Positions 12,150-26,179 of a DNA stretch of 64,000 nt are shown here, one piece after another. Source of the DNA: Fibrobacter sp. (GTDB lineage Bacteria; Fibrobacterota; Fibrobacteria; Fibrobacterales; Fibrobacteraceae); assembly GCA_031271785.1 (NCBI GenBank), contig JAISUZ010000011.1, forward strand, positions 1 through 64,000, written 5' to 3'. The position numbers were made by a program, and so were the translations under genes. Below the pieces are notes generated by a model. That model was not told the origin of the DNA. It ran no database searches and saw only the letters and a list, made by a program, of their open reading frames with translations. Each line of letters opens with the position of its first letter. The stretch's first letter is position 1.

Positions 12150-12470
12150 TCACCCGCCGGCAAGTTTGGCTTTGATGCCGCGGCGGTCAAGTTCGGCGAG
12201 AACCGTATTTCGCTTATCGCCCTGAATCTCTATCACAAAATCTTTGACCGCGCCCCCTGCGCCGCATTTTTGTTTCAGGGCGCGGCACAAATCCGAAAGT
12301 TCGGATTCTCCGCCCGGGATTCCCGAAACGCAGGTGAGGCTTTTATTCCCGCCGAGACGTTTCAATGAAATACGTACCACGCCGTCTGTGGCCGGGCGCA
12401 CGGCAGCCTTTTTCTCCGGATCCACGCGCCCGGTTTGCGTTGTGTAAACAAGTGTCGATTTTTCATCCAT
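12150..12470 (-). CDS. yciH: YciH/SUI1-family translation initiation factor
   Basis: The 106-residue protein is a SUI1-fold factor related to eukaryotic eIF1: a basic N-terminus, then ISLKRLGGNKSLTCVSGI, a helix around ELSDLCRALKQKCGAGGAVKD, and the final strand-helix IEIQGDKRNTVLAELDRRGIKA. Bacterial YciH is thought to monitor initiation complexes on the small ribosomal subunit. It starts divergently from argH, with 46 bp between the two start codons. Its 3' flank holds the structured element F and the hairpin and repeat cluster 11730-12120. Confidence 0.88.
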   Translation of the reverse strand: MDEKSTLVYTTQTGRVDPEKKAAVRPATDGVVRISLKRLGGNKSLTCVSGIPGGESELSDLCRALKQKCGAGGAVKDFVIEIQGDKRNTVLAELDRRGIKAKLAGG

Positions 12471-12516
12471 GGGGAGCCTTTATTTTTTATCTTTCAATAT
12501 AGTTTCGCGAGGTTTT

Positions 12517-13911
12517 ATGTCAATACAGGCAAGTGAGAAAAAAATGTGGGACGGTCGTTTTGAAAGCGGCATGGCCCCAAGCATGATTGATTTGAGTTTT
12601 AGTTTGCATGTGGATCAGGCGCTGATCGAAGAAGATATTGCGGGTTCGCTCGCTCACGGGAAAGGACTTGTGGAGTCCGGTGTGTTCTCGGCAGAAGAAT
12701 ATGAGAAAATCGCGGTGGCACTCCGGGGAATTTTGGAAGATTACCGCGCAGGCAAAGCGCTCTGGCAAGCGGGCGACGAAGATGTACACATGGCGGTGGA
12801 ACGCCTCCTTACGGAACGCGTGGGCGACCTCGGAAAAAAGATCCATACGGGCCGCAGCCGGAACGATCAGGTCGCCACGGATTTTAAACTTTATATGCGC
12901 CGCCGCGCCGCAGAAATTAAGAACCTTGTTCTTGAGCTGCAAACGGAAATCCTGAAACTCGCAGAAACGCATTTCGGAAAGCTGATGCCGGGCTATACGC
13001 ATGTTCAGCAGGCGCAGCCGATTCTTTTCAGCCATTATTTAATGAGTTTCTTTTTTGTGCTTTCACGCGATGTAAAGCGGTTTCAGAATTTTTTGGAAAT
13101 TCATAACGAACTCCCTCTCGGGAGCGGCGCTATGGCCGGTTCGGCATTCCCGTATCAGAGAAATCTCGTTGCCGAAGAACTCGGGTTTGCGTTCCCGAGC
13201 GCGAACAGCATTGACGCGGTGAGCCACCGCGATATGGCGCTTGAATTTACAAGCAACCTCGCGATTATCGCTTCTACGCTCAGCCGTTACGCCGAAGACC
13301 TCGTGAATTGGAGCACGAGCGAGTTTGGGTTCGTTACGCTTTCCGATGCGTTCAGCAGCGGGTCTTCCATGATGCCGCAAAAGAAAAATCCGGACAGTAT
13401 GGAATTGATCCGCGGGAAATCCGGGCGGATGCTCGGGAATTTTACCGCGCTTTTTACCCTCGTGAAAGGCGCGCCGCTTTCTTACAGCCGCGATTTACAG
13501 GAAGACAAGGAACCGGTTTTCGACAGCGTGCGTACCGTGAAAGTTTGTCTGCAAGTGATGAAAGAAGCGCTCGCTACCGCGCGCTGGAATTTTGAAACCA
13601 TGGAACGTAAAATGCTCCCGGCGCTTCTCGCTACCGACCTGGCGGATTTCCTGGTGGAATCCGGCGTGCCGTTCCGGAACGCGCACCATATTGTGGGTAG
13701 CCTTGTGGGTGAAGCGGCGAAACAGGGCAGGGAATTTACCGAACTTTCCGATGAAGTTTGGGAAAAAACCGGTGTTCCGAACCCGAAAGCGGTGAAAGCA
13801 AAACTCACTTTCGAATATTCCGTTGGGAAACGCAATATCGAAGGCGGTACCGGCCCGGATTCCGTGAAGCAGCAGTTTGAAAAAGCGAAAGCGTTGTTGA
13901 AAAAAAATTAA
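12517..13911 (+). CDS. argH: argininosuccinate lyase
   Basis: ArgH splits argininosuccinate into arginine and fumarate, the last step of arginine synthesis. The fumarase/aspartase-superfamily signature GSSMMPQKKNPDSMEL is present near residue 285, as are HTGRSRNDQVATD and LMPGYTHVQQAQP of the substrate sites. The start is the ATG at 12517, with GAGG four bases upstream (464 aa, normal length); a longer frame from 12469 would run into the yciH start and has no support. No other arg genes are nearby. The downstream flank begins with repeat D. Confidence 0.95.
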   Translation: MSIQASEKKMWDGRFESGMAPSMIDLSFSLHVDQALIEEDIAGSLAHGKGLVESGVFSAEEYEKIAVALRGILEDYRAGKALWQAGDEDVHMAVERLLTERVGDLGKKIHTGRSRNDQVATDFKLYMRRRAAEIKNLVLELQTEILKLAETHFGKLMPGYTHVQQAQPILFSHYLMSFFFVLSRDVKRFQNFLEIHNELPLGSGAMAGSAFPYQRNLVAEELGFAFPSANSIDAVSHRDMALEFTSNLAIIASTLSRYAEDLVNWSTSEFGFVTLSDAFSSGSSMMPQKKNPDSMELIRGKSGRMLGNFTALFTLVKGAPLSYSRDLQEDKEPVFDSVRTVKVCLQVMKEALATARWNFETMERKMLPALLATDLADFLVESGVPFRNAHHIVGSLVGEAAKQGREFTELSDEVWEKTGVPNPKAVKAKLTFEYSVGKRNIEGGTGPDSVKQQFEKAKALLKKN

Positions 13912-13918
13912 AATAAGA

Positions 13919-14037
13919 CTTGTCATGGCGAGGACAGGACCCGAGGCGCCATCCGGGCTCTGCATTGTTCCTCACCGGCTCGCCACGCCACTGCGTGGCT
14001 TGTGAAGACAAAGATGCGTTCCGCGTTCGCGATGACA
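13919..14037. repeat. palindromic repeat D, copy 1
   Basis: About 119 bp bounded by inverted ends TGTCATGGCGA and TTCGCGATGACA, with an internal GCCACGC/GCGTGGC hairpin. It matches 59909-60040 over roughly 90 bp (CCCGAGGC, CATCC, ATTGTT, TCACCGG, TCGCCACGCCA, CGTGGCTTGT). Its right end (14014-14037) is repeated base for base at 30423-30446. A small non-autonomous mobile palindrome is the likely nature. Confidence 0.75.
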
Positions 14038-14070
14038 AAAAGAGGTATGACTCCCGATAACGGCGGATGT

Positions 14071-14105
14071 GTTCTTCGTGATTTCAATGACTGAATTATC
14101 CATTT
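14071..14105. repeat. short repeat G, copy 1
   Basis: A 35-bp stretch beginning GTTCTTCGTGATTT and running through AATGACTGAATT is repeated at 53551-53585, with a single difference in the first 27 bases and two more (AT for CC) just before the closing CCATT. No gene or known site explains it; in both places it lies inside a cluster of larger repeats. Confidence 0.65.
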
Positions 14106-14140
14106 CCCTATACCTCATTCTCAAACCTTTCATACCCGAA

Positions 14141-14275
14141 GATCATGCTTTTAAGGGGGTAGCGGAAAATCCGCCGGGCGCCCCGGCGACGGGTGAAGCC
14201 GGATCGTAGAGTGAAGTACTTGGGCGCGCGATCAGCGGGTTTGAAGCGAGGGGGACGCTCCCCCTTTAATCTTTT
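14141..14275. repeat. structured element F, copy 2 (possible RNA)
   Basis: Second copy of the element at 12001-12120. GATCATGC, AAGGGGGTAGC, CCGGCGAC and GAAGCCGGAT are conserved at the 5' side, and GAAGCGAGGGGGA with its TCCCCC partner at the 3' side; the middle differs. The 5' AAGGGGGTAGC pairs with the 3' GCTCCCCCTT, closing the element. On the minus strand it directly follows the C-terminal remnant of a DUF1016 gene. Confidence 0.7.
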
Positions 14276-14483
14276 CTCTCTTCCCATTTTCCGAAGTTCT
14301 TCTTTCAGTTCTTCAATACTCGGCAAACTGCTTTTCAAATTATCCGGTAACCGCTTAGCCGGTTGATACTCGGAAACGCCGATTGATTAATTGCCGAAAT
14401 ATACAAAGCAAATTTCGTTCAGAAAACCCTTTCATATCGGGAAATTCCGCTCTCAAATCCTTGCTCAATCGCTCAAAAAGCCG
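14276..14483 (-). pseudogene. remnant of a DUF1016/YhcG-type nuclease gene
   Basis: Two fragments of one family lie in different frames. Immediately after the stop at 14484 the frame reads LSKDLRAEFPDMKGFSERNL (14483-14355), the hallmark of the DUF1016 N-terminal domain, and soon stops. From about 14386 the next frame reads IGVSEYQPAKRLPDNL and SSLPSIEELKEEL, the typical C-terminus of YhcG-like PD-(D/E)xK proteins. The central domain, some 250 residues in intact members, is missing. The gene has therefore suffered a large internal deletion. Such genes are often found beside restriction or toxin loci. Confidence 0.75.
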
Positions 14484-15140
14484 CTACCGTTTCTTTTCAA
14501 CCGGGGCGAGTCTGTCCGTAATTTTCATTAATTGATTGTAAAGTTCCAAGAAGTCTTCGACCCAAATCGGGTCGCGTTCCCCCACGAGGGAGAGTGTGGA
14601 TTCGAGCGTGTGAAGCGTGTTGTAAAGCCCGGTACCGATTTCCGGATGAGGGTGCTGGAAGGTGCCGTCGCCCGGGAGGAACGCGCCGCGCGCCCGGTAA
14701 GAGCGGTAGAGCCGGGAAATCAAATCACTGCGAATGCCGATGAGTTCTTCGTAAGCTTCTTTTAAGGTTCCGCTTTGAATGAGCGGCGTTATTTTTTCGA
14801 GGCGCCGTAAAAACGTTTCCCGTTCCGGCGCCGGGATCAAATGGCGTTTTAATTCGAGCGTTTCCTGAATCAGATTTTGCATTTGTTCCAAATGCGGCGT
14901 TTTCCAGTAAGATATTTCGGAGATTTGGACCGGCGGCGTTTGCTTTACGGTTTCTTCGCTTTGAGTTATCCATTTTTCCAATCGCAAGAGTGTTTCCCGC
15001 GCTTCGGCGGTGCGGGAAAGTACGCGGTATTCATTCGCGCGTTCGATTAAAAAATCGGCAAAGGCAAAGCGCCAATACGGAATTTTCCCGGACTTGCGGA
15101 GTTCTTCCAAACGGTTCCGAAGCGCAGAGAGGACTTCCAT
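14484..15140 (-). CDS. helical protein of the MotAB/ZorAB-like operon, unknown function
   Basis: I do not recognise this 218-residue protein. It is predicted almost wholly helical, soluble and charged (for example REAL-type repeats around TLLRLEKWITQSEETV and MQNLIQETLELKRHL), without signal peptide or membrane segment, and is probably cytoplasmic. The ATG at 15140 overlaps the OmpA/MotB-like gene's stop (TAATG); a GTG at 15158 is also possible. Last gene of a six-gene operon, so a cytoplasmic partner of the ion-channel complex is the natural guess. Its stop codon borders directly on the DUF1016 remnant. Confidence 0.7.
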   Translation of the reverse strand: MEVLSALRNRLEELRKSGKIPYWRFAFADFLIERANEYRVLSRTAEARETLLRLEKWITQSEETVKQTPPVQISEISYWKTPHLEQMQNLIQETLELKRHLIPAPERETFLRRLEKITPLIQSGTLKEAYEELIGIRSDLISRLYRSYRARGAFLPGDGTFQHPHPEIGTGLYNTLHTLESTLSLVGERDPIWVEDFLELYNQLMKITDRLAPVEKKR

Positions 15141-15778
15141 TAATTGGCGTTCTCCCACTTGAGAATGGAGGTGACGCCGATTTCTACGCGGCGGTTGAGT
15201 TTTCGGTTTTCTTCACTGGTGTTCGGTACCCGCGGGTAATGTTCGCCGAAACCGGCGGCAAATAAACGTTCCGGCGGATAGCCTTCTCCAATCAGCGTTT
15301 TCACCACATTTACCGCACGTTCGGTGGATAAGTTCCAGTTGGTGTAAGTTGAAGATTTTATCGGCGTGTCATCGGTAAATCCCGAGACCATGATCAGGTC
15401 GCCCGTGTCCAAAACATCGAGAAGCCCTTTGCCGATGGCCTGAATCACGCGTACGCCTTCGCTTGTGAGTTCGGCGCCGTTGATGGGGAACAGGAATGAA
15501 GCTTGAATTTGAATATTTCCGTTTTCAAGCGCGATGATTCCCTGATCAATGGAGGTTTGCAGACTCTTGGATAATAAGGCGTTGCGGATGCCCGCGAGTT
15601 TACGGATTTCTTCCTGGCACGAGAGAACTTCTTCTTCGGTGCGCGTGAGGTCTTGCGCTTTCTGCTCTTTGAGAGAGGTCATCACCACGAACGCGAGGAC
15701 GAAAAGCGAAAGCAACGCGACCGTTAAATCGGTGACGGCGAGCCAGGAGGTTTCTTCGGTTTCCTTCCGCTTACGCAT
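15140..15778 (-). CDS. MotB/ZorB-like stator protein with OmpA-type peptidoglycan-binding domain
   Basis: The 212-residue protein has a short cytoplasmic N-terminus, one membrane segment (about 13-34) with Asp17 in AVTDLTVALLSLFVL, the position of the proton/sodium-binding Asp in MotB and ZorB, then a coiled linker and an OmpA-like domain. The last shows VSGFTDDTPI, NLSTERAVNVVKTLIG, RLFAAGFGEHYP and NRKLNRRVEI, which bind peptidoglycan in the family. It overlaps the channel gene upstream by 8 bp and the helical-protein gene downstream, so all three are co-translated. Together with that channel it should form an ion-driven stator complex. Confidence 0.85.
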   Translation of the reverse strand: MRKRKETEETSWLAVTDLTVALLSLFVLAFVVMTSLKEQKAQDLTRTEEEVLSCQEEIRKLAGIRNALLSKSLQTSIDQGIIALENGNIQIQASFLFPINGAELTSEGVRVIQAIGKGLLDVLDTGDLIMVSGFTDDTPIKSSTYTNWNLSTERAVNVVKTLIGEGYPPERLFAAGFGEHYPRVPNTSEENRKLNRRVEIGVTSILKWENAN

Positions 15779-17339
15779 CCGATTTCACCTCGCCTGCCGG
15801 CGCGCGCCCGGATTGTTCGAGGATTTCCAACAAAATTTCCTGGGTTTTCAAAGCGTTCTCCACAAGAATTTCCCCGGCGCGCTCCTGGAACGATTCGAGG
15901 GAAAGCTGAAGCTGCTCCACGAAGTTTTGTTCGTTTTGCTGTTCTTCGGTGTTGCCCGAGAGTTTTTCAAGTACGAGTTCCATCCCCTGACGGAACATTT
16001 CCAGCGTGGCGGAGAACTCGGATTGATTGACGCGCATGAGAGTGGCGGCTTCGGAAATATTGGAAGAGAGTTCGAGCGAGGATTCGTTTTCTTTTTGAAT
16101 CCGCTTTTCCACTTCTTCGATAAGCGTTTTTTGCGCGTCCACGAGCGCTTTGGAAGATTCCGAGAACTTTCCGAAAGATTCATGAACGGTTTCAAAGAAC
16201 TGGTTCATTTTTCCGGCGCTGGATTCCGAGAACGCCGCCGATTGGCGCAGGGCGCTTTCCGTCATTTTCTCGGAAGAGGTTTTCAAGACTTCAAGACCGG
16301 CAAGCTGCCCTTCTTCCGCTTTTTTCCATTGTTCGAGCACTACGTCGATTTGCCGGTTGAATACGTTTGCGAAATTTTCTCCGAACGCGGTGATTGCATT
16401 TTTTAACTCGGCAATGGAACTCGCCTGCATTTCTTTCAAGGACCCGGCCAAAGCGGATTCGGAGGTTTGAAGCCCGGCCGCATATTTTTCAAAGAGTGCC
16501 GCAAGTTCGGAAGACATTTCGGTTTTCAAGCCGGCGACGGATGAAGAGATTCCCGATTTTAATTCCGTTACGGAGTTTGAAATTCCTGTTTTTAATTCGC
16601 CCACAGCGCTTGCAATGCCCGCAGCCGAATTTTGCTGTTGCATGGTTTCCATTTGCGCGGTGAGAGTTTCGACTACGGAAATCAGGCGATCTTCGCCGCT
16701 CACCGCATTTTCGGAAGAAGACGGCAGGAGTTCAAGCAGGGTAAATTCATCGAGTTCCGCCATAAAAGTATCGTAGCGAGAGACTAAAATACTATGCGAG
16801 GCATTCAGCACGAGAGAGGCGAGGAGTCCGCATAAACTCGTTCCGAAAATACCTTTCATGCTCGAAAAAATTTCCTGAACGGTGTTCAAAATATTGCCCG
16901 GATCCGATTGATTTTCAATGATGCCGCCCGCCGTAGAAATAGAAAGCATGAGACCGAAAAAGGTACCGAAAAGCCCGAGTAAAATCACGAGCCCGCCGTT
17001 ACTTTTTCCGATACGAATATTTTCTTTGGCATCCAGAATATCCGTAATCATTTGAGAAGAAAGTTTGATTTTCTTTGCGGTGAGTTTTTGAATCAGCCGC
17101 GCACGCGAGGCGGCAAGACCTTCCCCGTTCGGGTCAAAATGCGAAAACTGCAGCTGTTCGCGATTGACCCATTTCAGCAAGCGATAGGTGCGTACCTCGC
17201 TCCCGATGAATATGAGGAAAATAAGTATGCTGATGACCCAGCCGAAAAGCGGAGAGTCAAAGAATAGCATGCCGGCCACCAAAAGAGCAGCACCGGCGAT
17301 CGCGAGTAATAAAACGGTTTGCAATGAGTTTTTATTCAT
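15771..17339 (-). CDS. MotA/TolQ/ExbB-family channel protein with long coiled-coil tail (ZorA-like)
   Basis: Four membrane segments are visible (about 7-27, 31-48, 114-138, 162-186). The third has GLFGTFFGLMLSISTAGGI and the fourth GIFGTSLCGLLASLVLN, as in MotA/ExbB/ZorA channel subunits. About 330 residues of cytoplasmic tail follow, heptad- and hendecad-rich; residues 247-279 are three 11-residue repeats (GELKTGISNSV and variants). A long intracellular tail is typical of ZorA rather than of MotA or ExbB. With the downstream MotB-like protein it likely forms an ion-powered rotary or force-transmitting machine. A 4-bp gap follows the unknown gene upstream. Confidence 0.85.
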   Translation of the reverse strand: MNKNSLQTVLLLAIAGAALLVAGMLFFDSPLFGWVISILIFLIFIGSEVRTYRLLKWVNREQLQFSHFDPNGEGLAASRARLIQKLTAKKIKLSSQMITDILDAKENIRIGKSNGGLVILLGLFGTFFGLMLSISTAGGIIENQSDPGNILNTVQEIFSSMKGIFGTSLCGLLASLVLNASHSILVSRYDTFMAELDEFTLLELLPSSSENAVSGEDRLISVVETLTAQMETMQQQNSAAGIASAVGELKTGISNSVTELKSGISSSVAGLKTEMSSELAALFEKYAAGLQTSESALAGSLKEMQASSIAELKNAITAFGENFANVFNRQIDVVLEQWKKAEEGQLAGLEVLKTSSEKMTESALRQSAAFSESSAGKMNQFFETVHESFGKFSESSKALVDAQKTLIEEVEKRIQKENESSLELSSNISEAATLMRVNQSEFSATLEMFRQGMELVLEKLSGNTEEQQNEQNFVEQLQLSLESFQERAGEILVENALKTQEILLEILEQSGRAPAGEVKSDA

Positions 17340-17343
17340 ATTC

Positions 17344-18261
17344 TTAGGTTTGATGAGTTGTAAATTTCACGGAAGAGCGGGCAAAGAGATCCAATTGCCC
17401 GCGGGAAAAACCGCGGAGATAAAGCTGCCATTTTTTCTGGTACCATTCGCCGATTAAAAGCGTGATACCGCGGGCGTAATCGCAGAAATCTTCGACAAAA
17501 GCGAGAAAGGCGTTTTCATAAGCTTCGGCAGGGTTCCAAAGTTCTCCCACATGGCGCGCGCAAGCGACCGAAGAGAGATAATGGCGGATTTTCCGGCTGC
17601 TGCGGAACGCGCCGGCAAAACGCTGGAAAGTGACCTGAGAAAGAGAGCCTCTGAGCCGCGCTACATAAGCTTCTTCCTGATCTCTCAAAGAGGCTTCGAG
17701 GCTTGGGAGTAATTTTGAAATCGGCGAGAGCGCAATTTCCTTGTGCCAAATTTTACCGAGTCCGTCTTGAAGGTGAGACGCCCGCGATACCATCATCACA
17801 AGTAACTTTTCCGCGTCCCCGACCATTAAGTGAATCGTCGCGTGATAAAGGCTCCGGATTTCTTTGATGTTTCCTTTGAGGGCGAGATACCATCCCTGTT
17901 CGTCTTGGAGAATCCAGCCGCCCTGTAAAAGATTGCGGTGAATGTCTTCGGTAGAAAAACGCTGCAGCCATTTCAGGCGAAAATCTTCAAAACGCTTTTT
18001 AAATTCTTCGCAAAGCGCGGGGAAATGCGATTCCGCCCCTTTCCACGAAGACGCGCTGTAAGAGACCATTTCCGTTCCCGACATGAGAGATTCCGGGTCG
18101 GCAAGCGTGGCGTCCAGATGCTCGAAAAGTGCAATCGACCAGGGGACTTCCATGGAACCCGCGAGAGACGCCGTGACCGCGCTGCGGTTCAGGCGGTTAC
18201 CGAGGCGGACAAGGCTTGTGCCTGTCATTTTCCGAATGGAACGGCGAAAAACTTCATCCAC
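17344..18261 (-). CDS. soluble protein of the MotAB/ZorAB-like operon, unknown function
   Basis: A protein of about 305 residues with no recognisable domain: predicted mostly helical, many Arg, Trp and aromatic residues, no signal peptide and no convincing membrane segment, so probably cytoplasmic. I choose the GTG at 18261, 11 bp after the upstream gene ends, because GGAG lies eight bases before it; a TTG at 18300 would overlap that gene and lacks a ribosome site. Position directly upstream of the channel gene, with a 4-bp gap, ties it to that complex. No resemblance to ZorC, ZorD or ZorE is visible. Confidence 0.75.
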   Translation of the reverse strand: MDEVFRRSIRKMTGTSLVRLGNRLNRSAVTASLAGSMEVPWSIALFEHLDATLADPESLMSGTEMVSYSASSWKGAESHFPALCEEFKKRFEDFRLKWLQRFSTEDIHRNLLQGGWILQDEQGWYLALKGNIKEIRSLYHATIHLMVGDAEKLLVMMVSRASHLQDGLGKIWHKEIALSPISKLLPSLEASLRDQEEAYVARLRGSLSQVTFQRFAGAFRSSRKIRHYLSSVACARHVGELWNPAEAYENAFLAFVEDFCDYARGITLLIGEWYQKKWQLYLRGFSRGQLDLFARSSVKFTTHQT

Positions 18262-18272
18262 GGCCGGCTCTC

Positions 18273-18977
18273 CTAAAATCCTTCTTCCAAACGCCGCCAA
18301 ACTTTCTGCGGTACTTTTTTGTGTTTTACCGCAAGTTCTTCGGCTTCCGAGCGTTCGTCTTTTTCCAAATTATTCCGGATGAGCGCGCGGTCTCCGCGGA
18401 ATGCCGCTCCTTGCTCTATATAAAGTCCGAATGTATTTTTTTCAATGGCGAGTTCCCGGCCAGAAACCACGCCGGATTCCACCGAGAGCCCAAAGCGATT
18501 GTGAGTAAATGAGCATTTTGATAAATTGAGTTTGGGCGAGTTCTGAACCCAAAGCCCGTAATAATTGCTTTCAAATTTCACATTTTCAAAAGTCCCGGCG
18601 GATTCCGTGACCGTATTGCGGAACGCATTTTTCACAATCAGATTCCGAATGAGAAACGTGCGGGAACCGGTAATAAGGTGAAAACCGTTCCAGCTTTCCG
18701 AAGAATCCGCACTGTGAAACACCACCGGTTTTTCCGCCGTCCCGAGAACGGAGACTTTCCCGCGGAGCAGCAAACGGGCGTAACCGTTCATCTGCACTTC
18801 CACGCCGGGCTCTACGATCAGCGTATCGTTTACCGAGAGAACCGCGCTTCCTTCCAAAAGGTAAGGGCTCTCCGAAGCTTGCAGAACATGCTTTCCTTTT
18901 TTTACGAGAGAAGGGAACGGAGTCATGGCCCACAATGCGGAAAATCCGAGACACCATAACAAAATGAATATCTTCAT
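18273..18977 (-). CDS. secreted right-handed beta-helix protein
   Basis: The 234-residue product has a signal peptide (MKIFILLWCLGFSALWA) and then successive short strands with the spacing of a parallel beta-helix: DTLIVEPGVEVQMNG, FLIRNLIVKNAF, TFENVKFESNYYGLWVQNS, LNLSKCSFTHNRFGLSVES, ELAIEKNTFGLYIEQG. This is the NosD/pectate-lyase-like repeat pattern, but no catalytic residues can be named. The last 40 residues are charged and helical. The start overlaps the lipoprotein stop (ATGA). It is probably periplasmic or on the surface. Confidence 0.75.
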   Translation of the reverse strand: MKIFILLWCLGFSALWAMTPFPSLVKKGKHVLQASESPYLLEGSAVLSVNDTLIVEPGVEVQMNGYARLLLRGKVSVLGTAEKPVVFHSADSSESWNGFHLITGSRTFLIRNLIVKNAFRNTVTESAGTFENVKFESNYYGLWVQNSPKLNLSKCSFTHNRFGLSVESGVVSGRELAIEKNTFGLYIEQGAAFRGDRALIRNNLEKDERSEAEELAVKHKKVPQKVWRRLEEGF

Positions 18978-19819
18978 GAAATGCTCCGCAGGCTGATTTC
19001 CTGAATCACATGCATTTCAAGGCCGCTTTCGGCGATAGCACTGCTATCGGTTTCGGCTTCGATTTTTTCCCGCATCCGGATTCTTCCGTCGATCTTAATG
19101 ACGCCTTCTACCAATACGCCTTCGGAGACATTAAAAACCACGCTTCCGGAACCGAGCACAAAGCCCGCGCTTTCCATTTGGTAAATAGCGGAGCCGGAGG
19201 ATTCCTGACGGTACTTTATATTCATTTTCAAACGCGCGTAAGTGATTCCCCCGCGCACAAATAAATCTTCCACCTGAAACCATTTATAAACAAAGAGGTC
19301 GGGGCTGTTTTTTTCTCCGGCAATTAAATGCTGGCGTTCCCAGGAAGTGCCGACTTTCACCGGAGAAGACGGTAGTACGGGCTGCACTTTCAAAAACAAT
19401 TTGCGAATATCCAAATCGTTCGATTCAAAAACCGGCGCGTATTCTTCCATGGAAAGCGCGGACATTTGCCCGTCGCTCGCCATTTTGAATTGAAAATCCT
19501 GCGAACCGACGTAACGTTCAATGTGGCGGAATTCTTCTACCGAACGCTTATCGGATTGATACTTGGCCGAATCCACCTTAATTAAAAAACGCCCCGAACC
19601 GTCGTCGTAAGCGGAAAGTAAACTGGATGTTAGCTGCAGAAAAAGACGGGAGTCCATGGACTCGGGATTTTTTTCATCCGGGTCTTCAGCGAAGATTTGA
19701 ATTTTTGATTCCAAAACAAAAGTTTGATCCGGGACGTTTTGGGTGTTAAACGCAAGATCCACCTCTTGCTCCCGACAAGCAAAAATACAGAGCGTGATGA
19801 AAAGCAGCCGTTTTCTCAT
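18974..19819 (-). CDS. lipoprotein, first gene of the MotAB/ZorAB-like operon
   Basis: A 281-residue lipoprotein with signal MRKRLLFITLCIFAC (lipidated Cys15). The mature part looks like a beta-rich sandwich with alternating strands (SAIYQMESAGFVLGSGSVVFNVSEG, IKIDGRIRMREKI), reminiscent of the DUF6263 type, an uncertain resemblance. Charge after the cysteine does not settle which membrane it reaches. It overlaps the beta-helix gene by 4 bp and follows tadA after 14 bp, so transcription may also come from the symporter-tadA side. Confidence 0.72.
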   Translation of the reverse strand: MRKRLLFITLCIFACREQEVDLAFNTQNVPDQTFVLESKIQIFAEDPDEKNPESMDSRLFLQLTSSLLSAYDDGSGRFLIKVDSAKYQSDKRSVEEFRHIERYVGSQDFQFKMASDGQMSALSMEEYAPVFESNDLDIRKLFLKVQPVLPSSPVKVGTSWERQHLIAGEKNSPDLFVYKWFQVEDLFVRGGITYARLKMNIKYRQESSGSAIYQMESAGFVLGSGSVVFNVSEGVLVEGVIKIDGRIRMREKIEAETDSSAIAESGLEMHVIQEISLRSIS

Positions 19820-19833
19820 AAGTTAAAAATAGA

Positions 19834-20355
19834 TTATCCTTTTTGAATTTTTACTCCGGAATCCCCTTTTTTCGCCCGCATCTCTTGAAAAAAAGCCTGC
19901 ACCAAACCGAGACATTCGTCGCGGAGGACATTCCCGGTCAAGGAAACTTCCCGGGCAAGCCCGTTTCCGGTAATTACGTCCACCGTGGAGCCGCAGCCGC
20001 CGAAACGCGAATCCGGCGAACCGTAAACAATCCGGGAAATCCGGCTGTTTAAAATAGCTCCCGCGCACATGGGGCAAGGTTCGAGCGTGACATAAAGAGT
20101 GCAGCCGTCAAGCCGCCAGTTTTCGAGCGAAGAGGAGGCCGCCCCGATGGCGAGAATTTCCGCATGAGCGGTGGCGTCTCTTAAGGTTTCCACCTGATTA
20201 TACCCCCGGCCGATCACGCGCTCATTTTGAACGATCACGCACCCAATGGGTACTTCTCCGGCTTCGTAAGCTTTTTCAGCCTGCCGGAGCGCCTGGCGCA
20301 TCCATTTTTCATCGTTCTCAGGGGAAACAATATTTTGATTTTCAATCGCGTTCAT
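19834..20355 (-). CDS. tadA: tRNA-specific adenosine deaminase
   Basis: TadA converts A34 to inosine in tRNA-Arg(ACG). The zinc deaminase motifs are intact: HAE (His64, Glu66 as proton shuttle) and PCPMC (Cys94, Cys97). At 173 residues it is slightly long, with a polar N-terminal extension of about 15 residues. The ATG overlaps the symporter stop (TAATG). Normal housekeeping gene. Confidence 0.93.
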   Translation of the reverse strand: MNAIENQNIVSPENDEKWMRQALRQAEKAYEAGEVPIGCVIVQNERVIGRGYNQVETLRDATAHAEILAIGAASSSLENWRLDGCTLYVTLEPCPMCAGAILNSRISRIVYGSPDSRFGGCGSTVDVITGNGLAREVSLTGNVLRDECLGLVQAFFQEMRAKKGDSGVKIQKG

Positions 20356-21815
20356 TAGGCTTTCCTAAAAATCCGGTGAAGTAAAACCGCCGAGATAAAA
20401 GTGACGGAACAGGAAATCAGCGGGTTCCAAAAGTGGCTGAAAACGCCCATCAGCGGCGTGTGAAAAGCGGGGCACATCGGGATGCCGTTGAGAATCACCG
20501 TCGCCGCCATGCCGAGGAAAACACCGGCGAACACGAAACGCGTTTTAAGATACCCGCCGAAAAAAGCGAGAAGAAAAAGCGCGAGGAGCGGACCGGTGAA
20601 AAGCCCGGTGAAAAATAAAGCGTTATCGAGAAGCGAACGTGTCATGCGGACCGCCATAAAAGCGCACCCCGTACTGAGAACCGCCCAAAGAATCGTCCAG
20701 AGTTTTGCTTTGGAAAGAGACGCGGCATTTTCTTCTCGAATATGAAGAATATCTTTGACGGTCGTGTTTCCGAGAGAATTGATGGCGCTTGAAAGGCTGC
20801 TCATGGCCGCCGCATAAATGGCGGCAACCACTAACCCCGTTACGCCCGGCGGCAAAATATGAAGCAGAAAGTAAGGGAATACTTCATTCACATTGACCGA
20901 TGCCGGAAGCTCCGCCACATGCTTTACTTGAAAGAATACATAAAGCGCCGCGCCGACCCAAAAAAACAGGACCGAGACAAAAACCCCAAGCACCATGCTT
21001 AAAATACTCGAGCGGTTTGCTTCGCTCACATTTTTACAACTCAAATAACGCTGCACAAACTGCTGATCGCAGCCGCGAATCGCAATTTCCATGACCGCAT
21101 ACACAAGCCCCGCCGATAAAAAATTCCGGGGGTAAGCCGGGTCCCAATTCGAGAAATCGAGCCACCTGGTTTTTCCGTGGAGAGAGGCGAGGTGAGCCAT
21201 TTCCGAAAACCCGCCCACCGCATCGGCAATGACGGCAAGCGTAACCGCCCCGCCGCCGAACAATACCAAAAACTGAAGCACATCCGTCCACACGACCGCT
21301 TTGAAGCCGCCGTACCAAGTGTAAGCCGTGGCGATCACAGCGGTAATGAGAATCGCAAAATGAATATCGATACCGAGAATCGGCGCGAGCACAAGCGATG
21401 GGGCATAAAGCAAAATCCCCATGCGAAGCAATAAATGCAAACTGTAAAAAACAGCGGCGAGCCGCCGGACGGGAAGCGAAAACCGGTTTTCAAGAAGCTC
21501 GTAGGCGCTTGTAATACCCGCTTTTTTAAAACGCGGAATGAATACCCACCCAACGACAATAATCGCGATAAACGCGCCGAAATTATTCATCAGGTAAGTC
21601 ATGTCGGTGGCATAGGCGTGAGACGGATTCCCAAGGAAAGTCGTCGCACTCACGGAAGTGGCAATCAGGCTGATGCCGATCGCCACCCACGGCATGGAGC
21701 CGTTCCCGAACATATAACTTTTGAAATTCTTTTTCCCGCGCGAAGCAAAAAGCCCCACCGCAACGGAAAACAAAATGTAAACGACAAGAACCGTCCAATC
21801 AAGTGCGGTAAACAT
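20355..21815 (-). CDS. sodium:solute symporter (SSS family)
   Basis: A 486-residue inner-membrane protein with about 13 membrane segments and the SSS signature around GGFKAVVWTDVLQFLVLFGGG, as well as GNGSMPWVAIGISLIATSVSATTFLG in the first segments, which contribute to the Na+ site. It imports a small solute with sodium; the substrate (sugar, proline, pantothenate or sialic acid type) cannot be read from the sequence. It follows the diguanylate cyclase gene after 4 bp and is coupled to tadA. Confidence 0.85.
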   Translation of the reverse strand: MFTALDWTVLVVYILFSVAVGLFASRGKKNFKSYMFGNGSMPWVAIGISLIATSVSATTFLGNPSHAYATDMTYLMNNFGAFIAIIVVGWVFIPRFKKAGITSAYELLENRFSLPVRRLAAVFYSLHLLLRMGILLYAPSLVLAPILGIDIHFAILITAVIATAYTWYGGFKAVVWTDVLQFLVLFGGGAVTLAVIADAVGGFSEMAHLASLHGKTRWLDFSNWDPAYPRNFLSAGLVYAVMEIAIRGCDQQFVQRYLSCKNVSEANRSSILSMVLGVFVSVLFFWVGAALYVFFQVKHVAELPASVNVNEVFPYFLLHILPPGVTGLVVAAIYAAAMSSLSSAINSLGNTTVKDILHIREENAASLSKAKLWTILWAVLSTGCAFMAVRMTRSLLDNALFFTGLFTGPLLALFLLAFFGGYLKTRFVFAGVFLGMAATVILNGIPMCPAFHTPLMGVFSHFWNPLISCSVTFISAVLLHRIFRKA

Positions 21816-21819
21816 CTAA

Positions 21820-23667
21820 TTAAAACTCCGAAGCGGTCGTTTCTTTCTCGCCGTCATAACCGATGTATTCCACAACACGGTTCCGCCCTTCGGCCTTTGC
21901 TTTGTAAAGCGCCTTGTCGGCAAAGTGAATCGCCTGTTTCATATCGCGGAACTCGGGCTTCACCAAGAAACTCCCGATGCTCACCGTCACGGCAAGAGGT
22001 TCCGCGCGGTGAATATCAAACGGTTTCGCTTCCACCGCGCGGCGAATGCGTTCCGCAGTTTCTTTGAGGCCTTCGGGAGAGACATCCACGAGAGCCACCA
22101 CAAATTCTTCCCCGCCGTAACGCGCCACAATATCAATTTCACCGCGTACTTCCTGACTGATGGTTCGCGCAATGCCTTTAATTACTTCATCGCCTGCGGA
22201 GTGCCCGTAAGTGTCATTGACTTTCTTAAAGTGGTCGATGTCCATCATAAGAATCCCGATACCGATTTTCTGACGGTCGGCGCGAAGTTTTTCGGTACGG
22301 AGGCGTTCGTGCATGGTGCGGTGATTGATAAGCCCCGTGAGTCCGTCTTTAGCGGCGAGATCCCTGCCGGCTTCAAATTGGCGCGCCCGGTCAAACGCGA
22401 AACCCGCCACGCCCGCAATCGCTTTCAACAAATCTTTTTCGTGATTGGAAAACCGGCTCGGCTGATAACTCTCAAGGCAAATGGTAATATCGGCAGATTC
22501 GGCTCCCGGCTCTGTCGCTACAGGCATGGCAAACAAATAACGCAAGTGCGCGTTTTTCTTTTCCTTTTCGTTAATGCGGAGCAAATAATCGTTCGGATTT
22601 CCGGAAAAATTTCTTTCGATCGGGTAATTCCGGATGAGCGAAAGAATCACCACCCCTTTATCGGATAACGTAAATTCGTGATGAAGCATTTCATCGTGAT
22701 CCACGCCGTCGCACCAAACCACGCGCCCTCTCCCTTCCGCCGCATTTTCCACAGCAAGAATCATGAGGCGGTCGTAAGGGATATAACTCTTGACATACTC
22801 GAAAATCTGTTTGTAAATATCCTTCACCGTCATGTTCTGGAAGAAGTTTCTCTGATTATTGTAGAGAATACTGAACTGCTGCTGTTCCATGTAATTTTTT
22901 GCCGAAGCGTAACTCTTAAAGCAAAGCATATAAAGCGTTTTAGATAACGCCGTGAGAGCCGTCACCACCGAATTATCAAACGCATTCGGCGTTAACGAAT
23001 CGACCACCAAAACGCCTTGCTTCGCCTGATTCCGGTTGAACACCGGAACACCGGCGAGAGAACGGATTTGAGGATTGCCGTTGTAATAACAGAGCGCTTT
23101 TCCGCCGTGCAAATCCCCTTCCAAAATGCGGGACACTTCGGCTCGCATCAACGAGTTGATGAGGCTGCTGTTTTCGGATATATGCACATGAGGCGTGACG
23201 GAATCCGGTTCGTCGCTGATAAATTGCCGCAGCACGAGCGTACCGGGAGCCTTGCCTTCAAAGAAAAGAAGAACGGAATGCGCATTCGGGAGAAGCGACT
23301 TGAGAGCCTGCAAACCGAAGCGGAGCGAAGCATCCAGCTCGGATTCCACGGTGGTCCACAGCTGATCGATTTTCATTTTGGAAGTCGGTTCGTTGAACTC
23401 GGCGGCTTCCCGTTCAAAAGTAGTGCGGAGCTGCGGCTTGGTAATCGGGGGAACCGCTTTTCGAAGAATCATGCCCACCGCAGTCGCATCGTTTTTAGCC
23501 GTGCCGCGAGTGCTTTGAGGAGGGACCGGAAAACGCGGGCGGTTCAGCCAGCCGAACACCAGTGCGACTAACGCGAAAGGAATCAGAAAAAACCACATTC
23601 CGCCCTGAAAGCTAAGCCCGAGAAAAAATCCGGCAGATAAAAACAGCACATCGGATATAGGCAACAT
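21820..23667 (-). CDS. membrane-anchored diguanylate cyclase with GAF-like sensor region
   Basis: A 615-residue signalling protein. Two adjacent membrane segments at the N-terminus are followed by two GAF-like regions (about 95-260 and 285-450) and a C-terminal GGDEF domain with MMDIDHFKKVNDTYGHSAGD and the catalytic RYGGEEF, so c-di-GMP synthesis is expected. No RxxD inhibitory site is obvious just before the GGEEF. The ATG at 23667, 11 bp after lptG with GAGG four bases upstream, is preferred over an in-frame start 78 bp earlier inside lptG. Confidence 0.9.
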   Translation of the reverse strand: MLPISDVLFLSAGFFLGLSFQGGMWFFLIPFALVALVFGWLNRPRFPVPPQSTRGTAKNDATAVGMILRKAVPPITKPQLRTTFEREAAEFNEPTSKMKIDQLWTTVESELDASLRFGLQALKSLLPNAHSVLLFFEGKAPGTLVLRQFISDEPDSVTPHVHISENSSLINSLMRAEVSRILEGDLHGGKALCYYNGNPQIRSLAGVPVFNRNQAKQGVLVVDSLTPNAFDNSVVTALTALSKTLYMLCFKSYASAKNYMEQQQFSILYNNQRNFFQNMTVKDIYKQIFEYVKSYIPYDRLMILAVENAAEGRGRVVWCDGVDHDEMLHHEFTLSDKGVVILSLIRNYPIERNFSGNPNDYLLRINEKEKKNAHLRYLFAMPVATEPGAESADITICLESYQPSRFSNHEKDLLKAIAGVAGFAFDRARQFEAGRDLAAKDGLTGLINHRTMHERLRTEKLRADRQKIGIGILMMDIDHFKKVNDTYGHSAGDEVIKGIARTISQEVRGEIDIVARYGGEEFVVALVDVSPEGLKETAERIRRAVEAKPFDIHRAEPLAVTVSIGSFLVKPEFRDMKQAIHFADKALYKAKAEGRNRVVEYIGYDGEKETTASEF

Positions 23668-23678
23668 ACAACCTCGGA

Positions 23679-24776
23679 TTACAGTCGGAACGACCGGTAA
23701 AGCATCACGACCGAAATAAGGGCAAAAATGAAGTGCGCCACCCAAGCGGAGAGGATTGGAGACAGCGCTCCGTTTTCGCCCATTTTCAAGCCGATACGAA
23801 TAGCAATATAATAACTAAACACGAAGAATATGCCGATACCGAACTTCTGGGAAAGCCCTCCGGAACGGCTGAACCGGTGACTGAGCGCGGCCCCGATCAA
23901 AAGCACAAAGAAATTCATCACAGGGCCCGAAAATTTGAAGTAATAAGCGGTTTCGAGCGCTTTGGTATCTTCCCCGGAACGGCGGAGCCCTTCGATTCTT
24001 TCTTTGATCATTTTAGAATCCATTTCATCTCCGGTTTGACGCTCGTTGATAAAATCTTCGGGATAAACCCGAATTGTTTCCGGCAAGAATTTATCATGAA
24101 AAGGTTCGACTTGAATATCTCCGTTATTTTGGAAAACGCGGTAATAACCGTTCTCCATTCGCCAGCGGCCGGTAACGCTGTCTTCATTCAAAACCCAGCG
24201 CATGCGGCGGGCATCGTAACGTTCCTGCAAATTCCCCTCTTTCCCGATCAAAAGAGAAACGTCGCGCCCGAGTTTCAGCGTGCCGGAATAATGCCTGAAA
24301 AACCAACTCGTTTTATCATGCCCGATATAAGCAAAGTGAGAGCGGTCTTTTACCCGCCGGTTCTTTTTTTGCTGAGCGGAAGTTTCCATGATTTCAAAAC
24401 GCTTGAAGTTCGCATCGGGTAATATTTTCTCGCTCAGCACCCAGGAGAGTCCCGTACAAACAAAACCGACGAGAAACACCGGAAGTAAAATACGGAGCGG
24501 ATTGCGGCCCGCGCTCTGCATGGCCGATATTTCAAGATGCCGCGACATATTCCCCACAGAAGCCACCACCGCGATAAAAAGCGCCACCGGAGAAACCAAA
24601 TAGAGAATGTAAGGTAAATAACACAGGTAATAATCGATAGCCTCTTTCGTTTCCCGGGTGAGCCAAACCCGGATATTACCGACAAAGTCGATCACAATAA
24701 AAATGAAAACCGCCCCGAGCAGAAACAGGAAAAACATTTTTAAAAAGTTACGGAGCAGGTATGCCGAAAACTTCAT
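23679..24776 (-). CDS. lptG: LPS export ABC transporter permease LptG
   Basis: YjgP/YjgQ-family permease of about 365 residues: three N-terminal membrane segments, a periplasmic jellyroll and three C-terminal segments. With LptF and the LptB ATPase it extracts LPS from the inner membrane. The start at the ATG at 24776 overlaps the lptF stop (ATGA), as in many genomes; a frame opening at 24806 inside lptF is not supported. The second of two such genes in tandem, so the G assignment is by order and is tentative. Confidence 0.85.
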   Translation of the reverse strand: MKFSAYLLRNFLKMFFLFLLGAVFIFIVIDFVGNIRVWLTRETKEAIDYYLCYLPYILYLVSPVALFIAVVASVGNMSRHLEISAMQSAGRNPLRILLPVFLVGFVCTGLSWVLSEKILPDANFKRFEIMETSAQQKKNRRVKDRSHFAYIGHDKTSWFFRHYSGTLKLGRDVSLLIGKEGNLQERYDARRMRWVLNEDSVTGRWRMENGYYRVFQNNGDIQVEPFHDKFLPETIRVYPEDFINERQTGDEMDSKMIKERIEGLRRSGEDTKALETAYYFKFSGPVMNFFVLLIGAALSHRFSRSGGLSQKFGIGIFFVFSYYIAIRIGLKMGENGALSPILSAWVAHFIFALISVVMLYRSFRL

Positions 24777-26179
24777 GAGCGTTTCCTCCCGCTGCGGCTG
24801 AACCACTTTGCAAGATGCCGGATGGTCCGGAAGAATTTGGAATCACCGGAGTAACGATCCTGAATCATCGAAATCGTAAGCACAAGCCCGAACGCGCCGA
24901 TCACCATATTGGAAAACCACATGGCAAGCGCCGGCGGTACTGCCAAACGGTCGGCAAGATTCTCGCCGCCGATCAGGCTCACCCAGTAAATCACAAAGAA
25001 TGCGATACTGTAAATAATGCCCGTACCGATACCGCCTTTGCGCGCCATAATCCCGAGCGGCGCGCCGATCAACACAAACACAATGCACGCAAAAGCCGTA
25101 CTGAATTTTTTATGCACTTCCACCCAATACTGCGCCTCGCGTTTTTCTTCGGCTTCAAGCCGCCCGGCAAGCCGCTCCACCGAGCGCAGGCGCGCTTGCT
25201 CTTTCAGAGAAACTTCCCGGATCGCCCGCTTTAACCTTGAAGTATCCGCCGGCGCAAGCTGAATTTCCGCCGGCACCACCGAATCGCCGGGCAATAAATG
25301 CCGCAGTTCCGTAAGTCCGGGGAATGCGACCGACTTATTCTCATTCCAAATTTTTTGATAACTCGCTTTCGATTCCTTAATCACGCCGAGCATCATTTCA
25401 ACCGGCATCTCCCGGTCGCTCCGGTGATTGCGATTGCGGCGTTCCAAACGGTCATCCACATTTTTTACCGCGAAATCCTGAGAGAAAAAGCGGATCCGGA
25501 AATAATTCCCGGGATCGTCTTCATCGACAAGATGATTTTCGCCGCTCCGCAGGCGAAGCATCAGAGTCGCGCCGTTATCCACATAATCCATACTCGCGCT
25601 GTCGGCGATAATCACCCGCGGCGCTCCTTTCGTATCCGTTTCAAAAATCTGAATACCGTACAATTTTCCCGTTACCGGGTCAATATGGTTCACCCACAGC
25701 TGAACGCCGGGAAACTGCGTAATAAGCCGCCCCGCATCCACAAACGCATGAGGCTTTTTGCGAGAAACCGCAGACATCAGTTCCACGGAACGATGGTTCG
25801 CTTCGGGGAGAATCCAGTTATTAAAAATAATCAACAGCATGCTGAGAAGCGTTGCCACGAGTAAAATCGGGCGCAAGAGAAAAAACGGAGAAATGCCCGC
25901 CGCTTTAATCGCCGTAATTTCGAGATCGCCGGAAAGCCTGCCGAACGCCATTAAGCACGCCACAAGCACCGCCATCGGCACCGAAAGCGAAAGCATCCAC
26001 GCGAGGTTCAGCGCAAAAATTTCAAGGACCGTCCCCCAGGGAAGCCCTTTGGAGAGCACGCTGTCAAGAATGTTCACCAAAAAATCAACGACAAATAAAA
26101 AAGTAATCACAAAAAGCGCCGCTAAAAACGGAGCGATGTGTTCCTTCAATAAATAACGAACCAGAATCACCAAAACCAC
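24773..26179 (-). CDS. lptF: LPS export ABC transporter permease LptF
   Basis: A 468-residue YjgP/YjgQ-family permease, about 100 residues longer than E. coli LptF. The extra part is a charged helical insertion between the periplasmic domain and the C-terminal membrane segments (around LAPADTSRLKRAIREVSLKE). N-terminal segments include LKEHIAPFLAALFVITFLF and a long hydrophobic pair. Start codon GTG at 26179; nearby TTG and GTG codons are alternatives. It begins divergently from bamD, 74 bp away. It heads the minus-strand series that includes lptG and perhaps the diguanylate cyclase. Confidence 0.85.
   Translation of the reverse strand: MVLVILVRYLLKEHIAPFLAALFVITFLFVVDFLVNILDSVLSKGLPWGTVLEIFALNLAWMLSLSVPMAVLVACLMAFGRLSGDLEITAIKAAGISPFFLLRPILLVATLLSMLLIIFNNWILPEANHRSVELMSAVSRKKPHAFVDAGRLITQFPGVQLWVNHIDPVTGKLYGIQIFETDTKGAPRVIIADSASMDYVDNGATLMLRLRSGENHLVDEDDPGNYFRIRFFSQDFAVKNVDDRLERRNRNHRSDREMPVEMMLGVIKESKASYQKIWNENKSVAFPGLTELRHLLPGDSVVPAEIQLAPADTSRLKRAIREVSLKEQARLRSVERLAGRLEAEEKREAQYWVEVHKKFSTAFACIVFVLIGAPLGIMARKGGIGTGIIYSIAFFVIYWVSLIGGENLADRLAVPPALAMWFSNMVIGAFGLVLTISMIQDRYSGDSKFFRTIRHLAKWFSRSGRKRS

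What the first reader, a model, noticed from the sequence alone, without database searches (positions are those of the whole stretch)
14484..19819. Six-gene operon round a ZorAB/MotAB-like ion channel: candidate undescribed envelope machine
Seen: a MotA-type channel with a 330-residue coiled tail and a MotB/OmpA-type partner with the ion-binding Asp, overlapping or nearly touching genes for two unknown soluble proteins, a secreted beta-helix protein and a lipoprotein. Known: long-tailed MotA plus OmpA-type MotB occurs in Zorya defence (ZorA/ZorB), while ExbBD, TolQR and GldLM couple ion flow to envelope work. Inference: the unknown proteins are not ZorC, ZorD or ZorE by size or motif, and the exported components point to work across the envelope rather than plain phage defence.
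Basis: partly seen in the sequence, partly recalled or inferred. Interest (0 to 1): 0.8.

Follow-up and report, generated by a model that had tools for sequence, protein, structure and literature searches.

The report
Core-genome relative of Zorya type III
A six-gene operon in a Fibrobacter-family bacterium encodes an ion-channel motor closely related to the Zorya type III anti-phage system, but here it is a fixed, inherited part of every near-complete genome, and sister lineages keep its two soluble partners and the tip of the motor's tail without the motor itself, which points to a standing cell function rather than a dedicated phage defence.

Summary
In detail: six co-directed genes (window 14484-19819, minus strand), overlapping or nearly so. 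'Undescribed' needs correcting. The order F-zorA-zorB-G is that of Zorya type III (DUF3348-zorA-zorB-DUF2894; PMC8565338). ZorB is unmistakable (PADLOC ZorB3, E=1.9e-41) and ZorA is type-III-like (E=8.8e-10). The two 'unknown' proteins hit no family model, but profile comparison supports G~DUF2894 (P about 3e-4) and suggests F~DUF3348 (P 0.006-0.025); both beat 100 of 100 shuffled controls. It is a diverged relative, not a filed member. Two results are unexpected. (1) All 60 family genomes at least 90% complete carry F, usually beside tadA: a vertically inherited core locus. (2) F, G and an about 80-residue ZorA tail tip persist in lineages with no ZorB and no MotA domain (genera g2/g4; families f3-f5), on a one- or two-TM rod. 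So F+tip+G is the conserved core and the ion motor is optional. The lipoprotein/beta-helix pair is a separate module, found elsewhere in the phylum without the rest. Best reading: a housekeeping, membrane-tethered cytoplasmic machine, motor-driven in most of the family, related to type III Zorya. Function itself is untested.

The parts
18974..19819 (-). lipoprotein (281 aa, lipobox IFAC); member of a phylum-wide Fibrobacterota family, no Pfam family
18273..18977 (-). exported right-handed beta-helix protein (234 aa, signal peptide by inspection)
   Evidence: Pfam Beta_helix E=3.7e-7
17344..18261 (-). F: 305-aa soluble, mostly helical protein, candidate remote homologue of DUF3348
   Evidence: GTG start with Shine-Dalgarno
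15771..17339 (-). ZorA-like: MotA-type channel domain, long coiled tail and conserved C-terminal tip
   Evidence: PADLOC ZorA3 E=8.8e-10; hhalign to DUF802/ZorA3 E=1.4e-10
15771..16040 (-). conserved ZorA tail tip (about the last 90 residues), kept also in channel-less relatives
15140..15778 (-). ZorB-like: one TM helix with ion-path Asp17 and an OmpA/peptidoglycan-binding domain
   Evidence: PADLOC ZorB3 E=1.9e-41; hhalign E=2.2e-37
14484..15140 (-). G: 218-aa soluble helical protein with C-terminal GxYN...DPxWVEDF motif, probable remote homologue of DUF2894
19834..20355 (-). tadA, positional anchor upstream in most of the family; not part of the machine
12469..13911 (+). argH, downstream anchor in some relatives; not part of the machine

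Best explanation
The locus is a chromosomally fixed, vertically inherited relative of Zorya type III. ZorA/ZorB form an inner-membrane ion-driven motor (A5B2 by analogy with Zorya I/II) anchored to peptidoglycan by ZorB. Its long ZorA tail reaches into the cytoplasm and carries F and G at or near the tail tip. The conserved working core is F + tip + G; the motor energises or gates it where present, and has been lost, or was never there, in several lineages that keep the core on a simple one- or two-TM membrane rod. The most likely role is a standing cellular function on the cytoplasmic face of the envelope, responsive to cell-wall state, rather than dedicated anti-phage defence. Shown: gene content, order, fixation, channel-less variants, ZorA/ZorB homology. 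Supported but weaker: F/G homology to DUF3348/DUF2894. Inferred: binding of F and G to the tip, rotation, cellular role.
For: ZorB3 E=1.9e-41 and ZorA3 E=8.8e-10. Same order as annotated DUF3348-DUF802-OmpA-DUF2894 loci, found as F-A-B-G in 85 of 87 mainly betaproteobacterial loci. G vs DUF2894 P=2.2e-4 to 3.5e-4; F vs DUF3348 P=0.0055 (gap-trimmed) to 0.025; real scores 32.8 and 27.1 against shuffle maxima of 19.3 and 23.1, 100 shuffles each. F in all 60 family genomes at least 90% complete and in all 15 genomes of families f2-f5; ZorB in 56 of those 60, the four without it being g4. tadA beside it in 9 of 11 neighbourhoods read. Channel-less F-A'-G in g2, g4, f3, f4, f5, with the tail tip kept. 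F tree: f2 (channel) outside, g2+g4 (no channel) sister to the rest of f1 (channel), so a secondary loss is the simplest reading. No other defence system recognised in the 64-kb window. No viral contig found with an F or DUF2894 relative.
Against: A type III Zorya from Stenotrophomonas protects E. coli against phages (PMC8565338), so an anti-phage role cannot be excluded here. F-DUF3348 homology is weak and confined to about 30-45 N-terminal residues, and no curated model hits F or G of the window. The tail tip's match to the DUF802 C-terminus was not above controls. Core distribution argues against, but does not disprove, defence. There is no direct evidence that F, G and the tip touch. The secondary-loss reading rests on an F tree with forks of 89/83 and 85/84 support and two long branches.
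Confidence: 0.55

Rival explanations
1. It is a genuine Zorya type III anti-phage system that has become fixed as core innate immunity in Fibrobacteraceae; channel-less forms are derived sensors or decayed versions.
For: Gene order and ZorB3/ZorA3 subtype; experimental protection by a Stenotrophomonas type III system.
Against: Present in all near-complete genomes at a conserved position among housekeeping genes; the core survives loss of the motor, although motor function is required for defence in types I and II (PMC11890865).
Confidence: 0.25
2. One reading: an undescribed six-part trans-envelope machine in which the lipoprotein and beta-helix protein are working parts driven by the channel (TolQR/ExbBD/GldLM-like).
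For: Six genes stay together in most of the family; g2/g4 lack the lipoprotein, ZorB and the MotA domain together.
Against: Lipoprotein/beta-helix pair also exists without F/A/B/G in other classes; in f4 the lipoprotein gene sits beside a channel-less F-A-G; f2 has the channel but no lipoprotein was found in G041; g8 keeps the channel without the beta-helix.
Confidence: 0.12
3. F and G are unrelated to DUF3348/DUF2894; an independent ZorAB-like motor recruited two other soluble proteins into the same gene positions.
For: No Pfam, PADLOC or NCBIfam hit for F or G; F match short and marginal.
Against: Both matches beat every shuffle, fall in matching terminal positions, and occur at the expected gene positions.
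Confidence: 0.08

Closest known systems
Zorya type III (DUF3348-ZorA3/DUF802-ZorB3-DUF2894; Payne et al. 2021, PMC8565338)
   Same: Gene order and orientation, ZorB3 and ZorA3 homology, soluble-protein sizes of the same order, long ZorA tail, OmpA-type ZorB with Asp.
   Different: F and G too diverged for any curated model; core-genome and syntenic rather than patchy; lipoprotein/beta-helix pair in the same operon; relatives exist without the motor.
Zorya types I and II (ZorAB with ZorC/ZorD or ZorE; PMC11890865)
   Same: ZorAB motor layout with a long cytoplasmic tail.
   Different: No ZorC, ZorD or ZorE in the operon; ZorB scores far better with type III than with types I/II (1.9e-41 against 8.8e-22 or worse).
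MotAB, ExbBD, TolQR and GldLM ion-driven motors
   Same: Shared MotA/ExbB channel fold; MotB-like peptidoglycan binding in ZorB.
   Different: Long tail with F/G partners; MotA_ExbB Pfam match below its cut-off (14.6 bits against 22.9).

Membership tests
Zorya type III | ZorA with MotA-type channel domain and long tail | tested here: met
   PADLOC ZorA3 E=8.8e-10; hhalign E=1.4e-10
Zorya type III | ZorB with OmpA/peptidoglycan-binding domain and ion-path Asp | tested here: met
   PADLOC ZorB3 E=1.9e-41; invariant D17
Zorya type III | DUF3348 protein | tested here: inconclusive
   No curated-model hit; profile-profile P=0.0055-0.025, above 100/100 shuffles
Zorya type III | DUF2894 protein | tested here: inconclusive
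   No curated-model hit for the window protein; one of 26 relatives hits a DUF2894 model at E=0.019, member not identified; profile-profile P about 3e-4, above 100/100 shuffles
Zorya type III | gene order DUF3348-zorA-zorB-DUF2894 | tested here: met
   (by position; identity of the outer genes as above)
Zorya type III | anti-phage activity | not testable with these tools
   needs an infection assay
Defence system in general | patchy distribution, defence-island or mobile context | tested here: not met
   F in 60/60 near-complete family genomes; housekeeping neighbours; no viral-contig relatives found
Zorya types I/II | ZorC+ZorD or ZorE partner | tested here: not met
   none of the six proteins hits ZorC, ZorD or ZorE models

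The most novel reading that the evidence does not exclude
'Zorya type III' is one branch of an older housekeeping family whose essential part is F + tail tip + G on a membrane rod; the MotAB-type ion motor is an add-on that can be lost, and anti-phage defence is a specialised or incidental use.
Probability: 0.35. Interest if true: 0.78.

Novelty: new variant of a known kind. Interest (0 to 1): 0.58.

Why it matters
ZorF and ZorG of type III Zorya have no known function; Payne et al. propose that they regulate ZorAB. Natural lineages that keep F, G and the tail tip but have no ion motor argue that these are the working parts and the motor is auxiliary. They also give a small three-gene system in which the function can be tested, and they question whether every 'type III Zorya' call in a genome means a phage-defence system.

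Tried and rejected
AlphaFold2 models of F and G (pLDDT 87.8 and 87.9) have no PDB fold match at E<=0.001, and F none in the viral library. Sequence profiles of F and G against PDB sequences: no credible hit; G's best, glycogen phosphorylases at E=0.009, is a 49-residue stretch, judged chance. Isolated PADLOC hits of single relatives to JetB (MukE-like, E=0.001), JetC (E=0.0048) and Cas12 (E=0.0007) were each one member of 26 and treated as chance. Fibrobacter succinogenes proteome papers: FSU_0151 (OmpA family, 23.94 kDa) resembles ZorB in mass (23.96 kDa in some relatives) but not in pI (6.65 against 5.39), so no link is claimed. Tail tip vs DUF802 C-terminus: P=0.013, not above control slices (best control 0.0064). 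Flanks of betaproteobacterial loci show no dominant shared neighbour (largest cluster 18 of 85 loci) and were not screened for defence genes. No Rfam match in 13000-25000; promoter-like sites not above shuffles.

Full report
Observation. The six ORFs are present as described on the minus strand. Gene junctions overlap by 1, 4 or 8 bp or are separated by 4 or 11 bp.

Families. ZorB-like: OmpA E=7.3e-13, PADLOC ZorB3 E=1.9e-41. ZorA-like: ZorA3 E=8.8e-10. F and G hit no Pfam, PADLOC or NCBIfam model at a meaningful level. Type III Zorya is defined by flanking DUF3348 and DUF2894 genes and was shown to protect E. coli (PMC8565338). Annotated betaproteobacterial plasmid loci show DUF3348-DUF802-OmpA-DUF2894; the Cupriavidus record held no annotation. 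A GTDB scan with DUF2894 found 484 relatives, of which the best 80 were kept; with the 7 plasmid loci, 85 of 87 show F-A-B-G. PADLOC-DB labels DUF3348 'ZorG' and DUF2894 'ZorF', the reverse of the paper, so I use the DUF names.

Remote homology of F and G. With class-wide alignments, hhalign gives G vs DUF2894 P=2.2e-4 and 3.5e-4 against a deeper profile, through the C-terminal motif (GPYN...DPxWVEDF against GPLN...SPxYLxxF). F vs DUF3348 gives 0.022 and 0.025, N-terminal region only. Crossed pairings gave 0.023-0.36, so the F match is not convincing by P-value alone. In a gap-trimmed test against 100 column shuffles, G scored 32.8 (shuffle maximum 19.3) and F 27.1 (maximum 23.1, P=0.0055); reversed profiles scored 21.4 and 20.1. 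I call G probable and F possible-to-probable. AlphaFold2 models are confident and helical, without known fold relatives.

Distribution. Of 168 Fibrobacterota genomes, F is found in 105 of 111 of the window's family; the six without it are 62-88% complete, and all 60 genomes at least 90% complete have it (my count). All 15 genomes of families f2-f5 have F, and none of the 42 genomes of other classes has a match. G follows the same pattern, with misses in incomplete or diverged genomes. The locus sits beside tadA in 9 of 11 family neighbourhoods and near argH in some. The rest of the window is housekeeping (gyrase/topoisomerase, murA, aroC, argH, nuo). PADLOC hits there at E<=1e-10 are almost all helicase models, which I attribute to the RapA homologue, plus one nuclease-model hit not followed up. 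Relatives of F or DUF2894 were not found in viral contigs.

Channel-less relatives. In g2 and g4 (same family) the order is F-A'-G: A' is 180-232 aa, one N-terminal TM segment, a spacer (a PKIEIPKIEVP-type repeat in the two g4 sequences printed, L074 and L075) and the conserved about 80-residue tip. In f3-f5 A' has one or two TM segments, coiled coil and tip; in f5 the tip match is weak. No ZorB-like gene at E<=1e-30 was found in g2, g4 or f3-f5 genomes. f2 has both ZorB and the MotA domain. In the F tree f2 branches outside g2+g4 plus the rest of f1 (100/97; 89/83), so loss of the motor in g2+g4 is the simplest reading, with moderate support.

Exported pair. The lipoprotein family occurs across the phylum, and as an adjacent lipoprotein/beta-helix pair in other classes without F/A/B/G. 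It is a separable module.

Mechanism. By analogy with Zorya I/II, in which the ZorA tail, ion flow and ZorB peptidoglycan binding are all needed (PMC11890865), ZorAB here should sense or be anchored to the wall and turn or strain the tail. Because F, G and the tip persist without the motor, I infer that they form the effector or scaffold at the tail end, tethered under the membrane, with the motor as an energiser. Function is inferred, not shown.

Verdict. A diverged, core-genome relative of Zorya type III, not filed as a member because the DUF3348/DUF2894 identities are not established at curated thresholds. The channel-less variants are the surprising part.

Noticed in passing
L074:6519-7061 and L075:7183-7860: In two g4 genomes the ZorA counterpart has one TM helix and a PKIEIPKIEVP-type repeat rod in place of the channel and coiled coil.
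   Followed up: partly
L180:3971-5535, L181:4959-6526, L183:5133-6715: Lipoprotein/beta-helix pair without F/A/B/G in other classes; in L180 beside a class-I adenylate cyclase and an aminotransferase gene.
   Followed up: partly
L073:5673-6203, L074:5201-5782, L075:5868-6410: A thioredoxin/AhpC-like gene lies directly upstream of F in g2/g4.
   Followed up: no
L081:3151-6036: A 961-aa Ser/Thr kinase with TPR repeats lies just upstream of the lipoprotein-F-A-G cluster in family f4; similar-sized ORFs sit there in other f4 loci but were not scanned.
   Followed up: no
window, one of 49 ORFs scanned: One ORF outside the operon hits a PADLOC type II nicking endonuclease model (E=3.7e-22); not identified further.
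   Followed up: no
PADLOC-DB models PDLC00652-00658: ZorF/ZorG names are swapped relative to the defining paper (ZorG=DUF3348, ZorF=DUF2894).
   Followed up: yes
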